This document shows, in pieces, positions 4,631-57,551 of a stretch of 64,000 nucleotides of DNA. The position numbers were made by a program, and so were the translations under genes. The notes beneath the pieces were generated by a model. The model had not been told where the DNA came from and did not search any database. It saw nothing but the letters and a program-made list of their open reading frames with translations. The DNA is from Camellia lanceoleosa (Eukaryota > Streptophyta > Magnoliopsida > Ericales > Theaceae), in NCBI GenBank assembly GCA_025200525.1, contig CM045770.1, forward strand, positions 121,249,429 to 121,313,428, read 5' to 3'. Position 1 is the first letter of the stretch. Each line of letters starts with the position of its first letter.

Positions 4631-7600
4631 ATGAAGTTTGTATCTTGGAATATCAGAGGGTTAGGTAGGATTGAGAAGAGAAGGAGAATAAAAGAGTTCA
4701 TAAGGCAGAGAAAGGTTGACATGGTCTTCTTTTAAGAAACAAAAAGATCAGAAATGACAGAGTTATTTGTCAAATCACTATGGCCAGAAGAGTTGGTTGG
4801 TTTCATGGCAGTGGATGTTGAAGGAAGTGTTGGAGGGTTGCTTTGTGTATGGAGGCCTGAGGTGTTTGCCCTGATTGACTGCTGCAGTAACATAAATTGC
4901 ATCATTCTCTCAGGTAAAATGTATAATGTAATTGAATGTGTGGTTGTAAATGTTTATGCACCTAATGACAGGGGTATGAGGAGGAATTTATGGGAAATTT
5001 TGGGTAATCTTAAGCCTAAGTTTCCCAAACCATGGTGCATTGGGGGAGATTTTAATGAAGTTCGAGCAGTGGCTGAAAGAAAAGGCTGTATTATGAGGGA
5101 TGGTGGGATGAATGAGTTCAATGATTTTATAAATACATTGGAGTTAGTGGATGTCCCAATGATTGTGAAGAAGTATACGTGGTGTAACTCTTAGGAAGGG
5201 GAGAGGTGGAGTAGATTGGATAGATTTTTAGTTAGCCTAGAATGGTTAGAATGGTTTAGTTTCAAATTGTGGATGCTTTCTAGGTCATTATCTGACCACT
5301 GTCCAATATTATTAATGGAGGATGAAAGGCATTGGGGGCCTAAACCATTTAGGTTTTTAAATGCTTGGGTTCTCTACCCTACCTTTCTAGATAAGGTAAA
5401 ATCAGTTTAGAAAAATACTCAGGTGGATGGATGGGCTGGGTTCAGATTAAAGGTTAAACTGAAAGCCTTGAAGGAAGCTTTGAAAGTATGAAATATTGAA
5501 GTGTTTGGGAATGTTGAATACAAGCTCAAAGTGGCAGAGGATGCAATGCATGTACAAGACTTGGCTACTAAGAAAAGGCCTTTGAATGATATTGAAATAT
5601 CCAGAAGAAGAGAGGTCAAAGCGGAGATTTGGAAGTTGAGAAAAATGAAGGAATGGATTTGGGTGCAGAAATCCAGAGTAAATTAGGCTTTAAAAGGAGA
5701 TAGAAATACTAGGTATTCCCATATTATGGCTACAAAGAGGTTGAGTAGAAATCTGATGGATTCAATCATAATCAAGGGTACTTCTTACAACAATCCTCAA
5801 GAAATGAAACGGGAAATTACAAGGTACTTTGGAGAGGCATTTGCAGAAACTTGGAGGGTTAGACCAAAGCTTGGTGGAGCTTTTAGGCCAATTCCACCCT
5901 GTCAGGCTGAGTTGATGGTAAAAGAGTTTTCTGAATCAAAAGTATGGGCTTCTATTAAGAAGTATGATGGGAATAAAGCCCCTGGACCTGATGGATTTAA
6001 CTTGATTTGCATCCAAAAGGGATGGAGGATAATGAAGGATGATATTCTCAAATTTATGGCAGATTTTCATGAGAATGAGAAGCTGGTGAAGGGCCTAAAT
6101 GCTTCTTTTGTATCTTTAATTCCTAAGAAGGAAAACCTAACAAGTATTCAAGATTATTGACCAATCAGTCTCATAAATTCCATGTATAAGATTCTATCAA
6201 AAGTCCTAGCTAGTAGATTAAAACAAGTATTACCAAGTATCATTAGCTCAATACAGTCTGCATTCCTAAGTGGAAGAAGTATACTGGATGGAATATTAGT
6301 AGCAAATAAAGTGATAGACTGGTGGAAAAGATCCAAGAAAAGTGGGCTAATTTTAAAACTTGATTTTGAAAAAGCGTATGATACAGTAAATTGGAGTTAT
6401 TTGTTTGATATGTTGGGCAGGTTTGGGTTTGAGACCAAATGGGTGGAATGGATGAGGTCTTGCTTAAGTTCAACTTCATTATCTTGTCTATTTAATGGTT
6501 CTCCATCCGAGGAAATATGTCCCCAAAAAGGGTTGAGGCAAGGGGATCCAATCTCTCCATTTTTGTTCATTATCGCAGCTGAAGGGCTGAATATGTTGTT
6601 ATCAAGAGCCAGAGAAATAAGATTGATAAAAGGGGTCATGATTGGTGACGAAGGAGTGAAGTTATCTTACCTGCAATTTGCTGATGACACAGTCTTATTT
6701 TGTAAGGCAGACTGGGTAGATGTCTCAAATGTGAAGAGAATTTTAAAATGCTTTGAGGTAGTTTCTGGGCTAAAGATTAATTATCACAAAAGTGCTGTCA
6801 TTGGAGTGGGAATTGATGAGGATACAATTGCTGAGTTTGCTTCAAGACTAAATTACACAAGTCAAACACTTCCTTTTAAGTACTTGGGTATGCCTTTAGG
6901 GGCTAATCCTAGAAGAAAGCAATTTTGGAAACTTGTGGTGGACAAGTTCAAGGCAAAATTAGCTGGTTGGAAGAGAAGAGTACTCTCTTTTGCTGGTAGA
7001 GTGACACTAATTAAATCTGTGCTCTCTAACCTGCCAATGTATTACATGTCCTTATTTAAGATGCCTCAAGGAATAGCCAAGGAGATTGATAAGATACAAT
7101 CAGCATTCTTTTGGGGTGACTCTGATCTGAAGAGGAAGATACACTTAGTGAAGTGAAAGGAAGCTACAGTGAGTAAGAATCTTGGAGGCCTGGGTATCAG
7201 GGACATTAAAACAGTAAATGAGAGTCTATTGGTCAAATGGTGGTGGAGGTTTGGGGTTGAAGATGATGCACTATGGAAGATTTTGATTTGTAGAAAGTAG
7301 GGTGCTGAAGGTGGCAGATGATTCCCTTTTCATATGGTTGATTGTAATTGCTCCAAGATCTGGAGTGATACACTATCAGTAGTTCATTCCAATACTAGGC
7401 TCTCTAATTTTTTTCATAGAAAATGTTGAAATCAGAGTTGGGAGTGGGAGTAGGATTAAGTTCTGGGAGGATGCGTGGCTGGGCAGATTCTGTTTGAAGG
7501 ATAAATATTCAAGAATGTTTAGCATTTCCACTGATAAAGGGGTATCACTAAAAGACATGGTGGTTAGAAAAGGCAACATTGATGATTGGATTTTCAAGTT

Positions 7601-19069: not shown

Positions 19070-19413
19070 TTAACAGAAAACAGATTTCGCGAGTAGTTTT
19101 AGAAAACTAAGAGGTAATGAAAGGGAATATTGAAATTCGAAGACGAAATGAGTTTTTGATTCGATACAGTTGATTAGGTAATCAATTTATTTAATTGAGT
19201 ATAGAACCGAATGATAGTTAATTTAGCAATGTTGGTGTTTGCATTATTATCTTTGTGCGTTGACTTCCATTGACAACAAAACGATATAATATGAGACAGT
19301 ATTCCTTATACAATTTATTTGAAACTCATAGTTGAATTGATTTTCAAATGATGATTGAACAAAATCAACTTATCATGAACTTAATTCTATTGCATTTCTT
19401 TTATCAGAAATTG

Positions 19414-20520
19414 ATGATGGTTGACTGGTCCCAACTTCCATACGATATTATTCGGCTGATTGCAATAAGATTGAATGCTGTTGAAGATTTTCTTTCATTC
19501 TCTTTTGTGTGTCACTCATGGAGATCATTTTATTTGACCAAAAGCTGGACTCCCGGTCCTCAGATTCCATGGTTAATGCTCTCCGATAATGAAAACAGTG
19601 ACATCAGGAGTTTCTTTAGTTTATATAAGAACAAGGTTTATGAATTAGAACTACCTGAAGCTCGTGGTAGGCGGTGTTGGGGGTCACCTCATGGATGGAT
19701 TGTTATCATAGGAAGTGATCTTGAAATTCGTCTTTTGAACCCTTTTTCTAGGGCTTGTATCAATCTCCCACCACAGTCTACATTTGATGGCCAATTTGAT
19801 TTTCATAGTGCATGGTATCAATTCATAGACAAAGCAATTATAATTAAGAAGTCAAATGAATCGCATACAATCGAAGAAGAATTTCTGGTTATGGTTATTT
19901 ATGGTCCTTATCAAGATTTAGCTTTTTCAAGGCCAGGATACACTTCTTGGGTTAATGTTGAAGTTTCATCCTATTTTAGATTCCTAGATGTTGTGCTCTT
20001 TAATGATCAAATTTTTGCACTTTGTTACGTGGGAGATCTTGTGGTTATTGAGATCGATGCCCCTGGGCCTCCAACAGTGCTATATATTGCTCCACCACCA
20101 CATCAATTGGCATGGGAGAAATTATATTTGGTGGAATCATCAGGGGATCTTTTGATGGTTTACCGCTATGAATATGTCACGCTTTCTGGGTATCCTAGTT
20201 TGACACAGTTTGAAGTTTACAAGTTTGATTTGAGTATGAGAGAGTGGACAAAGCTTGAGGACTTGGGTAATATGGCATTATTTGTTGGTGACAACTATTC
20301 TATGTCTGTTTCTTCATCTAATATTTTTAATTGCGAATGCAACAAAATTTATTTTATTACTGACACAGTGGAACAATGGTGGTCATACAATGAGAGTTTT
20401 ATTGGACGTGATGTTGGCATGTATTGTATGGTAGATGGAACTGTTGAACCCTTTTTCTTTGGTGCGGATTACCCCAGTTATTATTCTTGTCCAATTTGGG
20501 TGATGCCAAGTTTGAGCTAG
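19414..20520 (+). CDS. F-box protein with DUF295 (KIB/SKIP23-like) domain
   Basis: Intact 368-residue frame. The N-terminal F-box (residues 5-45, WSQLPYDIIRLIAIRL then FVCHSWRSF) would dock to SKP1 in an SCF ubiquitin ligase. The rest is the plant DUF295 region: GSPHGWIV (90-97), LLNPFSRACINLPP (107-120), YLVESSGDLLMV, and an LGNMALFVGDN block near the C-terminus. Length matches complete family members. An in-frame ATG exists at 19348, but TTTTATCAG just before 19414 looks like a splice acceptor of a 5'UTR intron, and paralogues start at M.WSQLP; I therefore chose the first ATG after it (19417 is equally possible). A broken paralogue lies at 25179. The substrate is unknown. It is the only convincing intact host gene here. 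Confidence 0.85.
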   Translation: MMVDWSQLPYDIIRLIAIRLNAVEDFLSFSFVCHSWRSFYLTKSWTPGPQIPWLMLSDNENSDIRSFFSLYKNKVYELELPEARGRRCWGSPHGWIVIIGSDLEIRLLNPFSRACINLPPQSTFDGQFDFHSAWYQFIDKAIIIKKSNESHTIEEEFLVMVIYGPYQDLAFSRPGYTSWVNVEVSSYFRFLDVVLFNDQIFALCYVGDLVVIEIDAPGPPTVLYIAPPPHQLAWEKLYLVESSGDLLMVYRYEYVTLSGYPSLTQFEVYKFDLSMREWTKLEDLGNMALFVGDNYSMSVSSSNIFNCECNKIYFITDTVEQWWSYNESFIGRDVGMYCMVDGTVEPFFFGADYPSYYSCPIWVMPSLS

Positions 20521-39182: not shown

Positions 39183-40466
39183 TCAGGCTGTAGTGCGGTA
39201 CGCCCATAGTACATTTGGTAATTTCTCCGTCCATAGTCCCTTAGCAGCTTCCAGCTTAGTTTTGATGATCTTCAGAAGAGAACGGTTGGTAACCTCAACT
39301 TGGCCATTGGCTTGGGGATGACTTGGGGAAAAGAAACATGGTTGTATTTGAAGTTCTGCACAGAATTTCCTGAATTTGACATTGTCAAATTGTTTGCTGT
39401 TGTCGGAGATGATGGCTTGAGGGATGCCAAATCGGCACACGATCGACTGCCAGATGAATCTGGTTGTGTTCTGCTCGGTAATTGTAGCAAGGGGTTCCGC
39501 CTCCACCCATTTAGTGAAGTAATCAATGGCGACAATTGCGAATTTGGTTTGGCCTCGGCCGGTGGGCAATGGGCCAACTAGGTCGATCCCCCATTTGGCG
39601 AATGGGTAAGGGCTGCAGAGTGTGATTAACTCTGTAGGAGGAGTATGAGGGATATTGGCGAAGCGTTGGCACTTATCACATTTAAGCATGAATTCAGAGG
39701 CATCTTGGTTGAGAGTAGGCCAGAAGTAACCAGTGCGGAGTATTTTGTGGGCTAGTGACCTGACACCCAAATGATTGCCACATACACCCTCATGGACTTC
39801 TCTTATCACGTAGGTCGCTTGAGCAGGATTGAGGCATCTCAGGTATGGGTGTGAAAAACCACGTTTGTACAAGAGACCACTAATAAGAATGTAGTTGGAC
39901 GACTGGGCCCTGACTTTGGCTGCTTGCTGTTTGTCGTCTAGTAGTTCCCCCATTATCAGAAATAGAAAGATGTTAGCCGTCCATGGAATGGGTTCATTTT
40001 GGAGGAAGTGGACTTGCTGTTGGTTTGGGGAAATGGCGGGGTGGGCCAAGTACTCAAGGCAGACACTGTGGCTGAGGTCTGACTGGTCGGCAGAAGCTAA
40101 TTGAGCCATTTCATCTGCCTTGGAGTTTTCTACCCGCGGGATGTGCTTGATGTGGAAAATGTTGAAAAGGTGAGCAAGGGGGAGTGCAATATCCCTGTAA
40201 ACTCGTATTGTGCCTTCCTTGGCATCGAATTCCCCCGTGATTTGTCCGACAATGAGCTGGGAATCGCTGAACACTTGGATATGGCTAACACCAATGTCTC
40301 TGGCTAGACGGAGACCTGCTATCAATGCCTTATATTCAGCTTCATTATTGCTTGCATCGAACAAAAAATGGAGAGCACATTGGAAGTAACCACCCTCGGG
40401 GCGGTGAGGATAAGACCAGCCCCATTGCCTTCTTTGCAGGATGATCTGTCGACGTTGAGGGTCCAA
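39183..40466 (-). CDS. Tat second RNase H and integrase core (open 427-codon segment of pol)
   Basis: The N-terminal third is the additional RNase H: FDASNNEAEYKALIAGLRLA, then QVFSDSQLIVGQI and HIPRVENSKADEMAQLA. The integrase follows with a zinc-binding HxxH...CxxC region (HEGVCGNHLG then CDKCQ), then the catalytic triad region: GIDLVGPLP, SDNSKQF and the E in NGQVEVTNRSL. It ends at YRTTA where the frame breaks before the C-terminal region. This is the longest open piece of the element; it is a segment of a polyprotein, not a separate gene, and lacks a proper start. Confidence 0.85.
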   Translation of the reverse strand: MDPQRRQIILQRRQWGWSYPHRPEGGYFQCALHFLFDASNNEAEYKALIAGLRLARDIGVSHIQVFSDSQLIVGQITGEFDAKEGTIRVYRDIALPLAHLFNIFHIKHIPRVENSKADEMAQLASADQSDLSHSVCLEYLAHPAISPNQQQVHFLQNEPIPWTANIFLFLIMGELLDDKQQAAKVRAQSSNYILISGLLYKRGFSHPYLRCLNPAQATYVIREVHEGVCGNHLGVRSLAHKILRTGYFWPTLNQDASEFMLKCDKCQRFANIPHTPPTELITLCSPYPFAKWGIDLVGPLPTGRGQTKFAIVAIDYFTKWVEAEPLATITEQNTTRFIWQSIVCRFGIPQAIISDNSKQFDNVKFRKFCAELQIQPCFFSPSHPQANGQVEVTNRSLLKIIKTKLEAAKGLWTEKLPNVLWAYRTTA

Positions 40467-40942
40467 GAGTGAGGGTCGTCTACCTCAGTCTGGGGGCGCA
40501 AAGGTGGTGGGGCTGTGGTCGGAGTGGGATTAGTGAATTCCAGGATAAAATCGGCCACAGCCTGCCCTTTGATCGCCGTTCGAGGTCTGTGGGAAATGTC
40601 AAACTGGCTGAGCTTGACTGACCATTGCATAAGTTGGCCGGACAACTCTGGTTGTTGCATTATTTTCTTCAACGGTTGGTCAGTGAGGACGACAATGGGG
40701 TGGGCTTGGAAGTAAGGTCGGAGTCTCCTTGAGGCTATGACCAAGGCTAAGGCCATTTTTTCAAGCAAGGGGTAGTTCTTTTCTGCTCCCCTGAGAGCTC
40801 GACTGATGTAGTAGACCTGTCGTTGGACAGAGCTGTCTTCCTTGATGAGTGCTGCACTGACTGCGGTGTTTAACACGGCTAAGTAGAGGAAAATGGGTTC
40901 ACTTGTGATTGCCTGAGAAAGTAGGAGGGGTTGGCCATGCAT
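40322..40942 (-). pseudogene. Tat RNase H (first) and linker
   Basis: Follows the reverse transcriptase: LYLAVLNTAVSAALIKED, QVYYISRALRGAEKNYPLLE, then VVLTDQPLKKIMQQPELSGQ and the HRPRTAIKGQAVADFI linker. The second RNase H starts in this frame (SWTLNVDRSS.KEGNGAGL, with GSS reduced to RSS) and continues in another frame from about 40400. Dual RNase H domains are diagnostic of the Tat lineage. Confidence 0.8.
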
Positions 40943-40946
40943 TGCT

Positions 40947-41837
40947 TCAACTGCTGAAAAGCCTCTTTGGATTCTGCCGTCTACTCAAAAGTTTGCCGAA
41001 GAAGTTTGAAGAAGGGGAGGCACTTGTCCGTTGCGCGGGAATGAAGCGGTTGAGGGCGGCGACTTTGCCAGTAAGCCTCTGAACCTCCTTAACCATTCTG
41101 GGCGACTGCATTTCTATCAAGGCCTTGATTTTTTTGGGGTTAGCTTCGATGCCTCGCTGACTGACCATAAAACCCAAGAATTTCCCCGATCTTACGCCGG
41201 ATGCGCATTTCTCCGGTTTGAGTTTCATTTGATACTTTCGTACGGTGCCGAAGGTCTCTCGCAGATCGGCCAGATGATCAGCGGAGAGCTTGCTTTTGAC
41301 TAGCATGTCGTCGATGTATACTTCCATGTTCCGGCCTATCTGGTGATGAAAGACGGCGTTGACCAACCGTTGGTAAGTGGCCCCAGCATTTTTCAACCCA
41401 AACGGCATAACACAATAATGGTAGGTCCCCCGGTCGGTGATGAAGGAGGTGTGCTCCCGATTAGACGGGTGCATTAGAATTTGGTTGGATCCAGAGAAGG
41501 CGTCTATGAAGCTGAGCATTTGATGGCCGGCCGTGGCGTCAACGAGCAGATCTATGCGAGGAAGGGGATAACTGTCTTTCGAGCACGCTCGGTTAAGGTC
41601 TGAGTAGTTGACATAGAGTCGCCATTTACCGTTGTTTTTATTAACCAAGACCACGTTGGACAGCCATCTGGGGTAGTCCACATTTTTGATAAACTGTGCC
41701 TCAAGGAGCTTATCTACTTCGAAGGCGATAAGAGTGTTGCGCTCCGGGTGAAAGATGCGCTGCTTCTGGCGGAAGGGTCGGAAGTGGGGCTCAATGCTGA
41801 GAAGATGGGTTATGAAGGAGGGGTCAATACCCAGCAT
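40947..41837 (-). pseudogene. Tat reverse transcriptase
   Basis: Motifs in order: FEVDKLLEAQFIKNVDYPRW then LSNVVLVNKNNGKWRLYVNY, CSKDSYPLPRIDLLVDATAG, FITDRGTYHYCVMPFGLKNA then GATYQRLVN, and the catalytic YIDD at 41307-41318 (MEVYIDDMLVKS). An in-frame stop at about 41872 separates it from the upstream part of pol. It would copy the element RNA into cDNA in virus-like particles; this copy is broken on both sides. Confidence 0.9.
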
Positions 41838-42260
41838 GTCTGAGTTGGTCCAGGAAAATACGTCGTTGTGCTAAATCAGGAGGGTAGTAAGGTCGGCCTT
41901 TGCTTGGGAGGATAGTTGGCTGCCGATTTTGGTAGTTTTTGTCGGGTTGGTGGGGTCAATGGGGACCTCAACAAGCTTTTCCACTGGTTCCCCTCTGACC
42001 AGCTCGTCCTCGTCTCTGACGTCGAGCCCTTCAATGATCATAGCCTCCTTTAGCTTGACCTCTTTAAGTGAGGCGACGTAACATTCCTTGGCCATGGTCT
42101 GCTCTCCTCTTACTGTGCCGACTCCCAGGTCGGTGGGAAATTTGACGGCAAGATGGAAAGTGGATGTGATAGCTTGGAAAGCATTTAGGGCGGTACGGCC
42201 GAGGATGATGTTGTAGGCAGAGGGACAGTCGACGACGAGGAAGGTGAGTAACTTTGTGGT

Positions 42261-42584
42261 CTACCATGAGTATTCCCTGATTGTGATGGGAAGATCGATG
42301 GAGCCGATGGAGGTCACTCGATCTCCAGTGAAATCGACTAATGGGGTTTGGAGAGGGGACAGACTTTCTTCCCCGATCTTGAGCTGGCGGAAGCAATTTA
42401 GGAAGATGATGTCTGAAGAATTGCCGTTGTTGACGAGAACCCGTCTGACCTTGTAATTGGAGAGGAGGGCAGAAATGAGGAGAGGGTCATCATGGGGGTA
42501 ACGGATGCCTGCATAAATGGGCGTCTCAGAAGGTGATAGGCTCAGCCCATCGCTTTGCTTTGGAGGGTCGGTCCAATGTGGCAA
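42261..42584 (-). pseudogene. Tat aspartic protease
   Basis: The region reads LISALLSNYKVRRVLVNNGN then SSDIIFLNCFRQL, where gypsy proteases have a VLVDNGSS-type active site. The catalytic Asp is replaced by Asn in this copy. The reading frame shifts after SIDLPITIREYS, and downstream sequence towards reverse transcriptase (42260-41871) continues in another frame (EDELVRGEPVEKLVEVPID visible). Confidence 0.8.
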
Positions 42585-42859
42585 CTTCTTTGTCCGAGCC
42601 CTGCCTTATTTTTCTGAGTTCTGCTCGCTGAGCCGAGCAGGATGGTCCTCCACAAGCAAGTCCGCCGGAAATAACTCTGATTTCTCCAACAAGGGAGGCG
42701 GGGTTACCTTGCGCCCGAGGTTATTGTGGAGGGCGATCATGGCCTTGGTTAGGTTATGCTGGTTTCCGGGGAGGGGTGCGCTGGCGGTTGTTTCTGATGG
42801 GTTCAGTCTTTGGCCTCTGTTGAGAGCGAGTTTCCGTGAATCGACTGAGACGTCCCTGA

Positions 42860-43539
42860 CGTATCAAGCCCTCGACCTAATATTTGAGGTTAACACACTC
42901 CTCGATATTATGGCCGTGGTCTTGGTGAAAACGGCAGTATTTGGACTGGTCTCACCGATTGGAAGGAGACCGTGACGGTTGGGGCCATTTTAAGGGGTAG
43001 TCTCGTTGGATCTGGTTGAGGACTTGTTCCATGGGGGAATTGAGAGGGGTGTACCGTTCGAACCGGCCGGGCGGTCGAGTTAGTGCCGACCGGTCGGCTC
43101 GGGGGGGTCGGTCGGTATAATGAGGTGCTTGGTTATTGTACTGGGTGTTTATGGTTTCTGAGTCCTTTCTCTTCTCTCTGGGGGTCGGGTTTTTGGCTGT
43201 AGGGTCTTGGCGAGCGGCTAGGGAGTCTTCGGCATTCATGTATTTTTGGGCTTTGGAAAGTAGGGTTGCCATGGAGGTCGGTGGGTTTTTGGAGAGGGAG
43301 AAAAGGAAATCAGATGATCGTAGGCCGGCCATGAATGCTGTGAGGATGACCTTGTCATCATTTTTCGCCACCTGCAGGGCTTCGGTGTTGAAGCGGGTGA
43401 CAAAGTTGTGCAGCGACTCCTCCTCAGTCTGACGAATGTTGAGGAGCTGGGTTGTTGGACGCCGCTGGCGCTAGTCTCCAATGAAATGGTTGAGAAATGA
43501 GTCACTGAAGTGCTGGAAAGTGGAAACGGAGTTTGCTGG
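42860..43539 (-). pseudogene. Tat gag, 3' part (after the nested insertion)
   Basis: Continues the capsid region interrupted by the nested LTR: EESLHNFVTRFNTEALQVAK then NDDKVILTAFMAGLRSSDFL, typical of Tat gag. A Pro/Arg-rich linker follows (42990-43170), then a zinc-knuckle-like CRFHQDHGHNIEECVNLKY near 42945-42885. There is a stop directly after KY and another in the capsid part. The left edge of the nested LTR is at 43540. Confidence 0.8.
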
Positions 43540-51747: not shown

Positions 51748-52092
51748 AAAGGATAAATTACAAATACACCACCTGAGATTTAATTAAAATATGAATCGCT
51801 CCTTGTGATTTTGAAAATTACATTTTACCGCCTGAGGTTTTTAATTTTGTAACAAATCATCCATTTTATTAATAAATCATCAAGTAAATTAATAGTTTTT
51901 AATGATGTTAGAAATATGTTTGAATTAATAATTTAGATAATTTATTATTATATAGAAGAGCAATTATGAATTTTATTTTTTTAATTAATTTTATTAAATA
52001 AAAAATTCTAACAAGAGGTATTTGTAATTTTTTCAAACCACATGAGACAATATGTACTTTAAGCAAATCTCAGGACTGTATTTGTAATTTAC
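51748..52092. mobile_element. MITE with about 30-bp inverted termini
   Basis: The left end GGATAAATTACAAATACA..ACCTGAGATTT is matched by the right end AAATCTCAGGACTGTATTTG then TAATTTACC in reverse complement. About 345 bp, AT-rich and non-coding. Its right terminus is included in the 235-bp repeat that flanks the viral block, so this end of the MITE occurs again at 56379-56412. Confidence 0.65.
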
Positions 52093-52293
52093 CATTACAA
52101 AAACTTAATTGATGACATTAGCAAAAAAAATATTAATTATTTAATAATTAATTAACAAATGTGGCAATTCGTAATGCGAATATAAATATGAGAAATGGAA
52201 ATATAATTTCTAAAATATGAGAGAATAATTTATATTAAAATAAACTTTAAAGGTGTCAGTATGATTTACCCTAACAATAAATATATAAAATAT
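52059..52293 (+). repeat. Left 235-bp direct repeat flanking the viral block
   Basis: Matches 56379-56613 base for base at a constant offset of 4320, with four differences seen (at about 52064, 52091, 52174 and 52238). It starts inside the MITE right terminus and ends at ATATATAAAATAT. AT-rich, non-coding host DNA. Confidence 0.93.
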
Positions 52294-52329
52294 ATAAAAA
52301 TCCCCAATTATTTTGGCTTATATAATTTC

Positions 52330-52498
52330 CCGCTTGCGCTTGCCACCGTTTAATTTAAATTTTCCGCTTGCGCTTGCCTTTTTAGATTTTTAATCCTGGC
52401 CGCAGATCTGGGAGCGGAGCAGAGGCCCTAGCCGACAACGCGCCACAAATTGCGGAAGGGAGCACCAATCGGGGGACGACACGTGGCGTGGGAGGGGG
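52330..52498 (-). promoter_or_regulatory. Virion-sense side of the viral intergenic region
   Basis: Contains a 15-bp direct repeat CCGCTTGCGCTTGCC at 52330-52344 and 52364-52378, and a G-box ACACGTGGC at 52480-52488. A G-box and short repeated elements near the origin are usual in geminivirus intergenic regions. The coat-protein gene expected to start leftwards is absent; host repeat DNA begins at 52293. Confidence 0.5.
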
Positions 52499-52530
52499 GG
52501 AGCGTCCCAGGTAATATTAAGGGACGCTCC
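52499..52530 (-). promoter_or_regulatory. Geminivirus virion-strand replication origin hairpin with TAATATTAC
   Basis: A perfect 10-bp stem GGAGCGTCCC (52499-52508) / GGGACGCTCC (52521-52530) encloses a 12-nt loop. Read on the minus strand, the loop contains TAATATTAC (52511-52519), the invariant geminivirus nonanucleotide that Rep nicks. Its orientation is right: the nonanucleotide is on the strand opposite to Rep, and Rep starts 105 bp away. Both stem and loop are intact. Confidence 0.95.
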
Positions 52531-52537
52531 TGGGATC

Positions 52538-52545
52538 ATATATAA
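52538..52545 (+). promoter_or_regulatory. TATA box of the viral complementary-sense promoter
   Basis: ATATATAA just right of the hairpin and about 90 bp before the Rep ATG, the usual place for the geminivirus Rep TATA element. Short repeats AGAGAGTGA occur in the leader at about 52581 and 52623; whether any are Rep-binding iterons cannot be told. Confidence 0.65.
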
Positions 52546-52634
52546 CTCACTCCCTCACTCTCTTATACCAGTAAAGTTTTTAGAGAGTGACTTGCGTCAC
52601 CCGAGAGAATAAGTGATGTCATAGAGAGTGAGTT

Positions 52635-53608
52635 ATGGCATCAATGCGATGTCGTTTTAGAGTTCAAAACAAGAACATTTTCCTCACATATGCACAATGT
52701 TCTATACCCAAAGAACGATTGTTAGAGAAAATTAGAGAGCTGTTCACAAACAGACCACCAAATTATGTGAGGGTTGCACATGAATTACATGAGGACGGTC
52801 AACCACATCTCCATGCTCTTGTCTAGTTTCCATATTGTTTTCAGACACAGGATGAATGGTTCTTCGACATTACTCATGATCGAACTAATCCCCATTTCCA
52901 TCCAAACGTATTAGGGGCTAACAACCATCAGAATGTGCTGGAATACATCTCCAAACACGGGGATTACACGGAATGGGGCAAATTCCGTGAGAGGGGCCGC
53001 TGCGCTAATCAAAATAACAAAGAAATATATATCGTGACGCACTTGCCGCCGGCACCAAGGACGAAGCATTGGCAATGGTAAGAAATGGCGATCCAAAATG
53101 TTATTGGCTAAATTATGACAAGTTGTCATCCAATTACGACAAAATTTCATATACTCCGCCATTGCCGTATGTTCATCAATTTACAGATACAGTGTGGATC
53201 GTCCCAGCAGCTATACAGCAATGGGTTGCAGAAAATATAAGGGACGAAGCCCAACGACCACACAGGCCCAAGAGCATTATAATTGAAGGCCCATCTAGGA
53301 TTGGGAAAACATGTTGGGCCCGGTCTCTTGGGCTGCATAATTATTATTCTTGCCACATCGATTTGAGGGACCACAATGACAACGCTTTTTACAACATAAT
53401 CGATGATGTGGCCCCACAATTTTTGAAACACTGGCGGGAATTTATTGGAGTGCAACGAGATTTTTTTTCAAATTGTAAATATACCCGCCCAAAGAAAATA
53501 AAAGGCGGGATTCCAAGTATTATATTATGCAACCTCGGCGCTGACTCTAGTTACAAAGATTTTTTGGAAAAACATGAACACGCCGGGCTCAAAGCGTGGA
53601 CGATCTGA
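52635..53608 (+). pseudogene. Rep: Geminivirus replication initiator protein Rep, broken
   Basis: Rep nicks the origin and unwinds the replicating circle in the nucleus. Visible HUH-endonuclease motifs: FLTYAQC (residues 16-22), HLHALV (58-63), and the catalytic-Tyr motif YISK at 52944-52955. The helicase half has Walker A GPSRIGKT (53288-53311), a Walker B with NIIDDV near 53395, and a motif C ending in ILCN. Two lesions: an in-frame TAG at 52824-52826 directly after motif II, and a 2-base gain in an AT dinucleotide run near 53025 that shifts frame. Otherwise it is open end to end at about normal length (about 320 codons). No intron is indicated, unlike mastre-/capula-type Reps. It overlaps the TrAP-like frame by 35 bases. 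Confidence 0.93.
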
Positions 53609-54044
53609 AACGCAAAATTTTATACAATCGACCAGCCTCTGTTCGCCAGAACCAATCAAGAAGAGACATCGCAATGAGAAGAAGAAGGCCCAACGTAGAA
53701 AGATATTCCACTTCCAATGCGGCTATTCGTTATTCCATACGAATGGATGTATCGAACCACATCCACTGGAGAGAGAGGATGTTGTCAAGGGTCTTCTACG
53801 ACACTTTGACCAATCCGATGTGGTTCAGAGCCATAGACATGTCCATGTTGGGGAATCAGGGGGTATACAAGATAGAATGCCTGTTCAACTACAACCTCCG
53901 GAAAGCACTACGAATCCGGACGTTCACTGCGACAATGTATACATGGCTGACATACAGTGGTCTCAAAAGCCTATCGGAGAATGTATTTTCCCGGCTTATT
54001 GCACGCAGGATGACGAAGACATTATCCAGCTTTGGGATTATTAG
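53574..54044 (+). CDS. C2: TrAP-like (C2) protein of geminivirus, open frame
   Basis: 156 codons, uninterrupted. It starts 35 bases before the Rep stop in another frame, the standard position of C2. Its layout matches TrAP: a basic patch (residues 29-43, KKRHRNEKKKAQRRK), a Cys/His zinc-finger-like centre (C49, H55, C59, H63) and an acidic, hydrophobic C-terminus (DDEDIIQLWDY). In viruses with this gene it activates late genes and suppresses silencing. Similarity outside these features is weak and it is somewhat longer than usual, so the call rests on position and architecture. Confidence 0.75.
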   Translation: MNTPGSKRGRSETQNFIQSTSLCSPEPIKKRHRNEKKKAQRRKIFHFQCGYSLFHTNGCIEPHPLEREDVVKGLLRHFDQSDVVQSHRHVHVGESGGIQDRMPVQLQPPESTTNPDVHCDNVYMADIQWSQKPIGECIFPAYCTQDDEDIIQLWDY

Positions 54045-54087
54045 CCTCAGAAATTATTGTCTCAAGATCGACTATTGTACTTTTTAG
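53743..54087 (+). CDS. C3: REn-like (C3) replication enhancer of geminivirus, open frame
   Basis: 114 codons from the ATG at 53743, uninterrupted; an ATG at 53596 in the same frame would give 163 codons. I chose the later start because similarity to REn begins there and REn is usually near 134 residues. It contains NPMWFRAI, then FNYNLRKAL, and a C-terminal SSFGIISLRN block, all in the order of geminivirus REn. It overlaps C2 almost completely in another frame, as in begomoviruses and relatives. REn binds Rep and stimulates replication. A poly(A) signal AATAAA follows at 54150. Confidence 0.8.
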   Translation: MDVSNHIHWRERMLSRVFYDTLTNPMWFRAIDMSMLGNQGVYKIECLFNYNLRKALRIRTFTATMYTWLTYSGLKSLSENVFSRLIARRMTKTLSSFGIISLRNYCLKIDYCTF

Positions 54088-54304
54088 CTTTCGTATTATG
54101 TAAAAGATTGGCGATGGGAAAATATTTATGTACATTTTAATGATTAAATAATAAAATGTTAGGTTTTATTTAATTAAAGTGATTATTGTTTTGGATCGTA
54201 AACAATAATTTAAATGGGCCCAAATATAATCTCCCAAATGAAAAATCATTAACAGGCCCAATTACAGTCTCCTAAATGAAGAGGCCCTTATAACATGACA
54301 AGGC
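54088..54304 (+). other. Viral 3' region with poly(A) signal; recombination junction
   Basis: AATAAA at 54150-54155 is suited to complementary-sense transcripts. Two related 25-bp phrases (GGCCC.AAT.TA.TCTCC.AAATGA, near 54218 and 54257) follow. At about 54301 the sequence jumps into an inverted Rep copy. Confidence 0.55.
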
Positions 54305-54722
54305 CCAACGCTTCGTCCTTGGTGCCGGCGGCAAGTGCGTCACGATATATATTTTCTTTGTTATTTTAATTAGCGCAGCGGCCCCTCTCATGGAATTTGC
54401 CCCATTCCGTGTAATCCCGTGTTTGGAGATGTATTCCAGTACATTCTGCTGGTTGTTGGCCCCTTGTACATTTGGATGGAAGTGGCAATTAGTCCGATCG
54501 TGAGTAACGTCGAAGAACCGTTCATCCTGTGTCTGAAAAAGGTATGGAAACTGGACAACAGCATGGAGATATGGTTGACCGTCCTCATGTAATTCATGTG
54601 CAACCCTCACATAATTTGGTGGTCTGTTTGTGAACAGCTCTCTAATTTTCTCTAACAATCGCTCTTTGGGTATAGAACATTGTGCATATGTGAGGAAAAT
54701 GTTCTTGTTTTGAACTCTAAAA
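54305..54722 (-). pseudogene. Rep: Second, inverted copy of the Rep N-terminal half
   Basis: The minus strand from 54722 matches plus-strand 52655-53075, covering motif I to the start of the helicase half. It differs at many positions, so it is a diverged variant and not a recent inverted copy. FLTYAQC is intact, but motif II reads YLHAVV: the first His of the metal-binding HUH pair is Tyr. The TAG of the first copy is a sense codon here. One G is missing in the run after the catalytic-Tyr motif (YISKHG), shifting frame. Upstream, the frame runs into the minisatellite, which is not part of Rep. Confidence 0.9.
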
Positions 54723-55000
54723 TGACGTGCTGGCCTTGGCCTTGGCATGGCATGCTGCTGGCTTTGGCTGGGTTGCCTTGGCCTTGGCTTGGCATGGCAT
54801 GCTGCTGCCCTTGGCCTTGCATGGCATGTTGTTGGCTTTGGCTGGGCTGCCTTGGCCTTGGCCTCGGCATGGCATGCTGCTGGCCTTGGCCTTGGCATGG
54901 CATAGCATGCTGCTGGCTTTGGCTGGGCTACCTTGGCATGGCATGCTGCTGGCCTTGGCCTTGGCCTTGGCATGGCATGTTGCTGGCTTTGGCTGGGCAG
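54723..55000. repeat. GC-rich minisatellite between Rep and movement-protein fragments
   Basis: About seven units contain GGCATGGCATGCTGCTGGC followed by variable CTTTGGCTGGGCTGCCTTGG blocks, period about 33-45 bp. It is open in several frames (Ala-Lys-Pro-Cys-His repeats on the minus strand, Leu-Ala-Trp repeats on the plus strand), which merely reflects composition. Confidence 0.85.
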
Positions 55001-55347
55001 ATAACCTTCACCAGAATGAGGAGGGGGAATTGGAAATCGAAATCATAGACGCGACATCAAACTTGCCGGTTTCCAATATATTAATAGCAAATCCAAAGAT
55101 AGGAGATGCAATGTGGCAGAAGTTCACATTCAAGTCAATGTTAATTGATAAATGCAAGCTAAGCTACAGGCCACAGTGTCCATTTAATTCTACCGGTCGC
55201 GTTGAAGTTGAAATACGGGACACACGGTTACGAGCGGATGATCAATTACAGGCTCACTTTACTTTTCCAGTTACATGCCCAGTAGACATCACATATTTTG
55301 GAAACGCGTATGCTGCCGCAGATAAGAACGGATGCCCATTCGCATGA
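55000..55347 (+). pseudogene. BC1: Movement-protein fragment resembling begomovirus BC1
   Basis: About 115 codons. The N-terminal part is acidic (NEEGELEIEIID); the core reads KCKLSYRPQCPFNSTGRVEV then EIRDTRLRADDQLQAHFTFP and CPVDITYF, ending at a TGA at 55345. The core pattern (Y.....PFNS.G.V.VEI.D.R....LQA.F.FP..C.VD..YF) is that of the BC1 cell-to-cell movement protein of bipartite begomoviruses and of related 30K-type proteins in some monopartite geminiviruses of woody hosts. The C-terminal half, normally 150 or more residues, is absent, and the upstream frame runs into the minisatellite with no proper start. Confidence 0.7.
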
Positions 55348-55924
55348 TGTCCATCATTGTTTCAGGATGGCCAGTTAATAAAACATTCTCCTCTGATGAG
55401 CTTACCATTGCATTGTTTTCTATGTCAGATGACATATTGTTTTGGCTATATAACAATAAAAGCACAATTATTCTAACTGATTAACAAGAGGATAACTATT
55501 ATTGTTATTGATGAGCATGAAATTAACCTCTATAACTAATTGGTTGGCCTTAGTCATTTATTGAAGTAAATTGAAATATGCAGTCAATGTATACAGTGTT
55601 AATATTTATTTATCTTGTTTGACATGATGAGCCTTGAATTTCCAAATTATATGCGGTGTATAAAATGGAAAATTGAATCAGAAATTGGAAAAAGGGACAT
55701 GAATCAAAGAAGAAAAAGAAGATCACATGAATAGAAACTGGGCAGAAAGAAATGAGACATGAATAATTATATGTAGTGTATTTTTATCGTAAGAGGATCA
55801 TAGAAATATAAAACATAAACATACGAAGAAGGGAAAAAAAAAAAGTAGATATGAATCTTAGAAAAGAAACAAAAAGTTGAACTTATAAAAGCATGTTTCA
55901 CAATCACTAAAAAAACCGCAAATC
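55348..55924. other. AT-rich segment of unknown origin inside the repeat-bounded block
   Basis: No coding similarity was recognised to viral or host proteins. Composition returns to that of the flanking host DNA from about 55440. It is the first candidate place for the right virus/host junction. Confidence 0.45.
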
Positions 55925-56370
55925 CACCAAAGACATAGCTTCACAGTTGACTACAAACCTAGGAGCATTGATAGGTGCATATGCGCAGGAGTGGAGTGCG
56001 CATAAAAAACCTCCGCCAATCCTTATCTTTGAATAGTGTCAATGCCTTAACATACTACACCGGTGGTATGTCCCCTAGCTGAAGTAGGGCATCTTGACAT
56101 ACGTTAAGGGAATAGTCATCACCACTTGTGCTTACAGCCTCCGTGTCTGTTGATCGTGCACTGTACTATTCCGTCTTTGCTTGTACGCAGGTAGTGAAAG
56201 TTGCACGAACATTATCAAAGCCACTTGATCGTGACTTTTAAAACGACCACTATCACTTTGGCTATTGCCCCTCCTGTGACTTTTGCCCTTAGATATTTCC
56301 ATGCATTCATTTCCAAATGAGTTAACAGGAATGGTATCAGCCGCATTGCTCCCTCCAACCCTAGGCACCC
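55925..56370 (-). pseudogene. Myb/SANT-like (L10-interacting MYB / Harbinger-associated type) gene fragment
   Basis: On the minus strand, about 56120-55990 reads YSLNVCQDALLQLGDIPPV, a stop, then YVKALTLFKDKDWRRFFM. A short conserved helix ending in a V.L.LFKD.DWR..FM signature is the C-terminal domain of plant Myb/SANT-like proteins related to Harbinger transposon accessory proteins. Upstream, 56368-56132 gives a polar linker (NSQSDSGRFKSHDQ) in another frame. The N-terminal Myb/SANT domain is missing. It is host-type sequence trapped between the viral fragment and the right direct repeat. Confidence 0.5.
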
Positions 56371-56378
56371 AAAATTTG

Positions 56379-56613
56379 TTAAGGAAATCTCAGGACTGTA
56401 TTTGTAATTTAGCATTACAAAAACTTAATTGATGACATTAGCAAAAAAAATATTAATTATTTAATAATTAATTAACAAATGTGGCAATTCGTAACGCGAA
56501 TATAAATATGAGAAATGGAAATATAATTTCTAAAATATGAGAGAATAATTTATATTAGAATAAACTTTAAAGGTGTCAGTATGATTTACCCTAACAATAA
56601 ATATATAAAATAT
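56379..56613 (+). repeat. Right 235-bp direct repeat flanking the viral block
   Basis: Same orientation as 52059-52293, about 98% identical. Only the last 35 or so bases of the MITE terminus are included, so the sequence was copied from a locus that already carried the MITE. Confidence 0.93.
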
Positions 56614-57140: not shown

Positions 57141-57551
57141 TTAGGGTCCAACTTGTCTCATGTTTGAGATTAAGGCTAGATTGTCCAGTTTGGCCCATGG
57201 GCCCATTTTTGAGTTTGGTTTTGATAATCCAAATCATTGAATGCGTAAACCTCGTCGAATACTATATCCCTGTAAAAAATCATGCAGATCGAATATCAAT
57301 AGCTATTTGATTGGATCAGATTTCTATTAACCATTTATTTTTTCATCGTCCATTTTTTTTATTTCTACAAATCTAATCTGATCAAATAGCTATCGATATC
57401 CGATCAACGTAATTTGTTACAGGAATATAGCACTCGACGAGTTCTACATATTAAACTGTTTAGATTATCAAAACGATACCTAAAAATAAGCCCATAGGCC
57501 AGACTAGACGGTCCACTCTTGATCTCAAACATGAGACAAGCTTAACCCTTA
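57141..57551. mobile_element. Long inverted-repeat (foldback) MITE
   Basis: The left end TTAGGGTCCAACTTGTCTCA then TGTTTGAGAT is mirrored by ATCTCAAACATGAGACAAGC then TTAACCCTTA at the right. Inverted similarity extends inward over most of the element (GTTTTGATAATCC / GATTATCAAAACG; CCTCGTCGA / TCGACGAG; AATAGCTATTTGAT / ATCAAATAGCTAT). It is related to the nested element at 11200-11522. Confidence 0.8.

What the first reader, a model, noticed from the sequence alone, without database searches (positions are those of the whole stretch)
52294..54155. Endogenous geminivirus with an intact TAATATTAC origin next to Rep-TrAP-REn
A perfect 10-bp stem with the canonical nonanucleotide lies on the strand opposite to Rep. 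A G-box, TATA box, Rep, overlapping C2 and C3 frames and a poly(A) signal are in the expected positions. Endogenous geminivirus sequences in plants are known from a few lineages, mostly as Rep remnants; an origin plus a complete complementary-sense gene set is unusual. Because the hairpin is intact, Rep from an infecting geminivirus might still recognise it.
Basis: partly seen in the sequence, partly recalled or inferred. Interest (0 to 1): 0.9.

Follow-up and report, generated by a model that had tools for sequence, protein, structure and literature searches.

The report
Decayed geminivirus fossil in Camellia DNA
A stretch of a tea-family plant's chromosome holds broken remains of an old two-part plant virus, one of many similar copies in that genome, and comparing some of those copies suggests that related viruses were captured more than once and then decayed.

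Summary
An exact TAATATTAC in a perfect 10-bp stem (52499-52530), with geminivirus Rep, TrAP and REn domains on the other strand, lies in plant DNA. Rep is broken: two in-frame stops and a frame change. The host is a Camellia. Endogenous geminiviruses with origins and MP/CP domains are published for tea (PMC7758297), so this is a new member of a known kind. In the same genome the common region sits next to BC1 in 7 of 20 loci read, and hairpins with stems of 11 bp or more occur in 9 of 20: an intact origin is ordinary here. New here: variants shared between loci are over-represented at third codon positions in Rep (100 of 193) and BC1 (30 of 40); private Rep variants (57 of 189) and a non-coding control are not. 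That fits repeated capture of an infectious bipartite virus, then decay. The window's own subfamily looks secondarily copied, probably by break repair.

The parts
51754..52091 (.). MITE-like host element, 338 bp with 37-38-bp terminal inverted repeats; the left copy of the direct repeat begins inside its right terminal repeat
   Evidence: 78% copy in L012 that ends at 52091
52059..52292 (+). left copy of the 234-bp direct repeat (33 bp of MITE end plus about 200 bp of host DNA): probable duplicated target
   Evidence: 4 mismatches in 234 against 56379-56612
52294..52634 (.). geminivirus intergenic (common) region with G-box 52480, hairpin and TATA 52539
   Evidence: several sister loci align from 52287
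52499..52530 (-). origin hairpin, 10-bp perfect stem, loop with TAATATTAC at 52511-52519
52635..53674 (+). Rep (AC1) pseudogene: stop at 52824, frame change at about 53018-53024, stop at 53606
53574..54041 (+). TrAP (AC2)-like open frame (stop-to-stop frame 53502-54044)
   Evidence: Gemini_AL2 E 5e-6, 27.3 bits against a 26.8 cut-off
53578..54084 (+). REn (AC3)-like open frame, start codon unclear
   Evidence: Gemini_AL3 E 7e-9
54150..54155 (+). AATAAA after REn
54305..54727 (-). inverted, truncated second Rep piece (catalytic domain), itself frame-broken
54728..54998 (.). G+C-rich minisatellite, period about 75, 3.6 copies
54998..55339 (+). piece of a BC1-type movement protein (Gemini_BL1), cut at both ends
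   Evidence: E 2e-20; 88% to Camellia oleifera geminivirus MP; sister loci align to 55337-55339 at most
55345..56378 (.). filler of unknown origin, no Pfam match in the frames scanned
56379..56612 (+). right copy of the 234-bp direct repeat

Best explanation
The block is a dead, rearranged relic of a bipartite, begomovirus-like geminivirus in a Camellia nuclear chromosome. Shown: pieces of a DNA-A-type component (common region with origin, broken Rep, TrAP, REn), an inverted Rep piece and a DNA-B-type BC1 piece sit together between two copies of a 234-bp host sequence. Inferred: related viruses were captured repeatedly in the Camellia germ line, in places as tandem units of about 2.5 kb; the copies decayed neutrally; and the piece seen here was later carried or copied into a staggered break on this chromosome, whose repair duplicated 234 bp of target. 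It probably does nothing as a virus now; at most it is a source of small RNA or a methylated repeat, as proposed for tea EGVs in PMC7758297. The confidence given is for the first sentence; the repeated-capture step is rated apart in the most novel reading (0.55).
For: Domains. Host: F-box frame 96% to a C. sinensis protein over 53% of the query; 14 of 17 listed Rep matches carry a Camellia sinensis name, 3 carry none. Integration. Target duplication: 234 bp, 4 mismatches, starting inside a MITE end. Bipartite: common region, then 146-171 bp, then BC1 in the same orientation in 7 of 20 sister loci, two of them with only a short BC1 match; BC1 converges on a frame of the coat/BR1 family in L024 and L028, and with sub-cut-off matches in L011 and L017. 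Infectious phase: variants shared by two or more loci fall at codon positions 38/55/100 in the Rep piece (41 copies, p 1.2e-7) and 8/2/30 in BC1 (9 copies, p 8e-8), while Rep singletons are 70/62/57 and the non-coding common region is 29/26/30 shared and 40/35/35 private (26 copies). Rep pairs within one locus are flat, 62/55/48 over 7 pairs at 5 loci. Secondary move: the window's subfamily (6 copies) is flat for shared (5/12/9) and private (16/16/18) variants, and its best-scoring sister differs by 110 of 1677 columns against 4 of 234 for the direct repeat (p 0.002).
Against: No empty site was seen: the genome search for it did not complete. The date comparison is not significant on the 521-bp Rep piece alone (16/521 against 4/234, p 0.34). 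BC1 singletons also lean to third positions (20/19/37, p 0.018), so they are not purely post-integration. In two shorter Rep catalytic pieces shared variants lean to third positions (13/5/24, p 0.0015; 19/10/27, p 0.02), but the contrast with singletons is not significant (p 0.14 and 0.45). The TrAP/REn overlap shows no third-position excess in either frame. BC1 rests on 9 copies. No tree with named exogenous geminiviruses was built. Only 40 of 279 candidates were scored and the stretches read were the best-scoring ones.
Confidence: 0.8

Rival explanations
1. Post-integration selection: one or few captures, then copies multiplied inside the genome from master copies whose Rep stayed under purifying selection in the plant (an expressed Rep, or Rep-driven amplification as a mobile element). 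This would also give shared third-position variants and neutral private ones.
For: The pattern in Rep alone fits. Selection on yam EGV Rep after integration has been argued (PMC5014472, section 3.6 read), and on some sites of tea Rep in Rep-HSP70 co-transcripts (PMC7758297, section 3.8 read). Some sister loci have long open frames over Rep.
Against: BC1, a movement protein with no evident use inside a genome, shows the same pattern among shared variants (8/2/30). Within-locus duplicates are flat. The window's subfamily is flat.
Confidence: 0.2
2. The direct repeats mark a transposable element (LTR-like or another capturing element) that carries the viral pieces, rather than a repaired break.
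For: Two near-identical direct repeats 4.3 kb apart flank the whole block.
Against: The repeat starts inside a MITE end and holds further sequence not found elsewhere in the window. By eye I see no TG...CA ends, primer-binding site or polypurine tract. None of the 20 stretches matched the repeat, the minisatellite or the filler at E 1e-6.
Confidence: 0.1
3. Contaminating or episomal virus, or an assembly artefact.
For: Geminiviruses are reported from Camellia (stated in PMC7758297, results part 1), and the block mixes pieces.
Against: Three breaks in Rep, an inverted piece, a minisatellite, a place inside a 163-Mb contig with plant genes and retroelements on the left side, and 39 other scored matches on many contigs.
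Confidence: 0.03

Closest known systems
Endogenous geminivirus-like (EGV) elements of Camellia sinensis, Sharma et al. 2020 (PMC7758297; abstract, passages and parts 1-3 of 4 of the results read)
   Same: Same host genus; hundreds of Rep loci; coat/movement domains near Rep; potential nuclear shuttle proteins; an integron with TAATATTAC; hotspots
   Different: The complete integron described there is of Clade 3, with coat, movement and Rep genes on one 4.6-kb molecule; here AL2/AL3 and a BC1 piece of a two-component, begomovirus-like kind. They infer at least five integrations in Camellia; the codon-position test here suggests more. This locus may well be among their 967 and 918 loci.
Macadamia endogenous geminiviral element, PMC8626973 (abstract and results read)
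   Same: Begomovirus-like, TAATATTAC origin, Rep, AC2, AC3, AC4; Rep frames broken; partial duplication
   Different: Coat-protein remains there; BC1 piece here; no flanking direct repeat described in the part read
Yam EGV1 and EGV2, PMC5014472 (abstract, sections 3.2, 3.6, 3.9 and passages read)
   Same: EGV1: origin hairpin with TAATATTAC, Rep and REn, repeats of 2.6 kb
   Different: No TrAP detected there; TrAP-like frame and BC1 piece here; post-integration Rep selection argued there, not seen in the window's subfamily
Camellia oleifera geminivirus movement protein (P0001; named also in PMC10306228, passages seen)
   Same: 88% identity over the BC1 piece
   Different: 320-residue protein there; about 114 residues here
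Olea europaea geminivirus, PMC8000510 (passages seen)
   Same: Bipartite geminivirus of a woody host
   Different: Its movement protein is in the virion sense; here BC1 is on the Rep side of the common region; a Southern blot there suggested no integration

Membership tests
Endogenous geminivirus (Geminiviridae-derived) | Geminivirus-type Rep catalytic and central domains | tested here: met
   Gemini_AL1 in two pieces and in the inverted copy, Gemini_AL1_M
Endogenous geminivirus (Geminiviridae-derived) | TAATATTAC in a stem-loop opposite to Rep | tested here: met
Endogenous geminivirus (Geminiviridae-derived) | Covalently inside host DNA | tested here: met
   (assembly level only; no reads seen)
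Endogenous geminivirus (Geminiviridae-derived) | Rep falls within Geminiviridae in a tree with named viruses | not tested
   No named exogenous Reps at hand; six solved Rep sequences match the catalytic piece, best E 1e-25
Begomovirus-like | AL2 (TrAP) and AL3 (REn) genes | tested here: met
   AL2 marginal
Bipartite (DNA-B) | BC1 movement protein on the complementary-sense side of the shared common region | tested here: met
   7 of 20 sister loci; in the window itself the BC1 piece is not beside the common region
Bipartite (DNA-B) | BV1/NSP in the virion sense, converging on BC1 | tested here: inconclusive
   convergent frames of PF00844 in L024 and L028 (above cut-off) and L011 and L017 (below), but that family covers both coat protein and BR1
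Functional virus | Open Rep | tested here: not met
Functional virus | Coat protein present | tested here: not met
   no match in 21 frames of the block and its edges
LTR retrotransposon | LTR ends, primer-binding site, polypurine tract at the direct repeats | tested here: not met
   by eye only; repeat starts inside a MITE end

The most novel reading that the evidence does not exclude
Camellia chromosomes are an archive of a once-circulating bipartite begomovirus-like population: closely similar copies at different loci are separate captures of circulating variants, not descendants of one insertion. In one subfamily (11 copies at 10 loci, chosen as those within 5% of one copy) all 16 variants shared between loci are at third codon positions, while private variants spread as 7/11/16. 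The window's locus belongs to another subfamily that decayed and then spread inside the genome, here by break repair with a 234-bp target duplication.
Probability: 0.55. Interest if true: 0.55.

Novelty: new member of a known kind. Interest (0 to 1): 0.35.

Why it matters
By itself it is one decayed copy among hundreds. As a set, the copies could tell how often, and from how diverse a virus population, a plant genus captured geminiviruses, and whether Rep selection reported for other endogenous geminiviruses arose before or after capture. Setting shared against private variants, gene by gene with a movement protein and a non-coding control, makes that question testable from assemblies alone.

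Tried and rejected
Shared element ends: BLAST ends at 52287, 54311, 54998 and 55339 recurred in sister loci and at first suggested an element with fixed ends; rejected, because these are the window's own junctions, where its viral sequence stops. LTR model: rejected. Older split of the two Rep copies: a first look gave 93% identity, but the differences are patchy, 16/133 in one patch (52827-52959) and 7/286 elsewhere (p 0.0003, patch noticed after the fact); outside the patch they do not differ from the direct repeat (p 0.76), so no claim is made. Solved-structure search found Rep structures for the catalytic piece, nothing for the Rep central piece or BC1. Codon-position counts in the TrAP/REn overlap are uninformative, as two frames overlap there. 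RNA families and tRNAs: none. Empty-site search: not completed.

Full report
WHAT IS THERE. The window is plant DNA. From 52294 it holds a geminivirus-type intergenic region with a TATATAA (52539), a CACGTG (52480) and one exact TAATATTAC on the minus strand, at 52511-52519. The nonanucleotide alone is no surprise (0.88 expected in the window), but it sits in a perfect 10-bp stem with a 12-nt loop; the strand folds at -12.2 kcal/mol with z -5, and 0 of 300 Markov sequences of the same length had the motif in such a stem. Downstream on the plus strand are Rep (Gemini_AL1, AL1_M), TrAP (AL2) and REn (AL3) domains.

REP IS BROKEN. The Rep frame is interrupted by a stop at 52824-52826, a change of frame at about 53018-53024 and a stop at 53606-53608. 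Searched apart, the three pieces match the two longest Camellia sinensis Reps found (P0006; P0012) at 59/63 and 55/63, 44/56 and 46/57, and 169/195 and 161/196 residues. TrAP and REn are open stop to stop; AL2 only just passes its cut-off. No coat-protein domain was found in the 21 frames of the block and its edges that I scanned.

An inverted, truncated Rep piece at 54305-54727, a minisatellite at 54728-54998, a BC1-type movement-protein piece at 54998-55339 (Gemini_BL1 E 2e-20; 88% to the Camellia oleifera geminivirus movement protein, the only protein listed), about 1 kb of unmatched filler, and a direct repeat of 234 bp around everything (52059-52292 and 56379-56612, 4 mismatches).

HOST. 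An F-box protein frame at 19342-20517 is 96% identical to a C. sinensis protein over 53% of its length; matches that cover more of it are at most 71% identical. Of 17 listed matches to the second Rep piece, 14 carry a Camellia sinensis source name and 3 carry no name (P0004, P0011, P0017). The own assembly is 3.0 Gb in 790 contigs, and the window lies on a 163-Mb contig. The species is not settled. The genes and retroelements identified lie to the left of the block; right of it I identified only a dispersed repeat.

SISTER COPIES. A search with the Rep piece 53080-53600 gave 279 candidates, of which 40 were scored, the window included, all at 89% or more (a lower bound; some matches are neighbours in one array). 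I read 20 of these places as 9.5-kb stretches. The common region is followed after 146-171 bp by BC1 in the same orientation in 7 of the 20 (L009, L010, L014, L022, L024, L025, L028, counted by eye; in L022 and L024 only 149 and 89 bases of BC1 match there). Of 10 long frames scanned from sister loci, one is BC1, six match the coat/BR1 family (four above its cut-off: L024, L026, L027, L028; two below: L011, L017) and three do not. In L024 and L028, and more weakly in L011 and L017, that frame converges on BC1, the layout described for DNA-B of bipartite begomoviruses (PMC8000510, introduction passages seen). L026 repeats the Rep unit with a period of about 2.5 kb and L025 repeats BC1 with about the same period. 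Hairpins with stems of 11 bp or more around TAATATTAC occur in 9 of the 20.

WHEN DID THE COPIES DIVERGE AS VIRUS, AND WHEN AS JUNK? I compared codon positions of variants, keeping copies that matched at least 450 of the 521 Rep bases (41 copies with the window) or at least 300 of the 340 BC1 bases (9 copies); shorter matches were dropped. Rep: singletons 70/62/57 (p 0.51), variants shared by two or more loci 38/55/100 (p 1.2e-7). BC1: singletons 20/19/37 (p 0.018), shared 8/2/30 (p 8e-8). Non-coding common region (26 copies): singletons 40/35/35, shared 29/26/30. Leaving out CpG columns keeps the result (Rep shared p 0.0002, BC1 shared p 0.0003) (all). Two shorter pieces of the Rep catalytic domain lean the same way among shared variants (13/5/24 and 19/10/27), but not significantly more than their singletons (p 0.14 and 0.45), and the TrAP/REn overlap shows no third-position excess. 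Rep pairs within one locus are flat, 62/55/48 over 7 pairs at 5 loci. Shared variants therefore arose largely under protein constraint and private Rep variants without it. As the movement protein shows the same among shared variants, an infectious phase is the simplest account. The p-values treat variants as independent, which they are not entirely.

THE WINDOW'S OWN COPY. Its subfamily (6 copies) is flat for private (16/16/18) and shared (5/12/9) variants: 27 of 76 at third positions, which rejects a 60% share (p 2e-5). So this subfamily probably spread as dead DNA inside the genome. The best-scoring sister differs by 110 of 1677 columns, the direct repeat by 4 of 234 (p 0.002), although the Rep half alone gives no significant difference (16/521, p 0.34). 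The direct repeat begins inside the right terminal repeat of a 338-bp MITE-like element (51754-52091), a copy of which in L012 ends at 52091. That is what a duplicated target looks like and not what an LTR looks like. I take the block for filler put into a staggered break. The empty site could not be searched.

STANDING. Endogenous geminiviruses are published for tea in very high numbers (967 and 918 Rep loci), with movement, coat and potential nuclear-shuttle domains, hotspots, an integron with TAATATTAC, and methylation close to that of transposable elements (PMC7758297, results parts 1-3 read). Origins next to Rep are published for macadamia and yam (PMC8626973, PMC5014472). Library searches for flanking duplications or a shared common region in endogenous geminiviruses listed 9 and 4 papers; I opened only one of each list, at passages (PMC3198968, PMC8000510), so I make no claim that this is not in print. 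The finding is a new member of a known kind.

Noticed in passing
54272-55042 (-): The minisatellite and the inverted Rep piece form one open frame of 256 codons, a chance fusion of repeat and Rep catalytic domain.
   Followed up: no
52827-52959 against its inverted counterpart near 54416-54550: The two Rep pieces differ by 16/133 here and by 7/286 elsewhere, as if one variant had been patched in by recombination or gene conversion.
   Followed up: partly
55289-55480 (-): A short minus-strand frame holds the same five residues that begin the Camellia oleifera geminivirus movement protein; perhaps an inverted BC1 start, perhaps chance.
   Followed up: no
57143-57500: A 135-nt inverted repeat pair; relatives at 73-75% lie in the stretches L010 and L012, so it is a dispersed host repeat.
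   Followed up: no
L004 (also L011) and L006: Two loci share a junction that joins the REn region (window 53944) straight to BC1 (window 55241): a common rearranged ancestor.
   Followed up: no
39186-43470 (-) and 6161-7153 (+): Remains of a retrotransposon with gag, reverse transcriptase and integrase domains, and of a second reverse-transcriptase element.
   Followed up: partly
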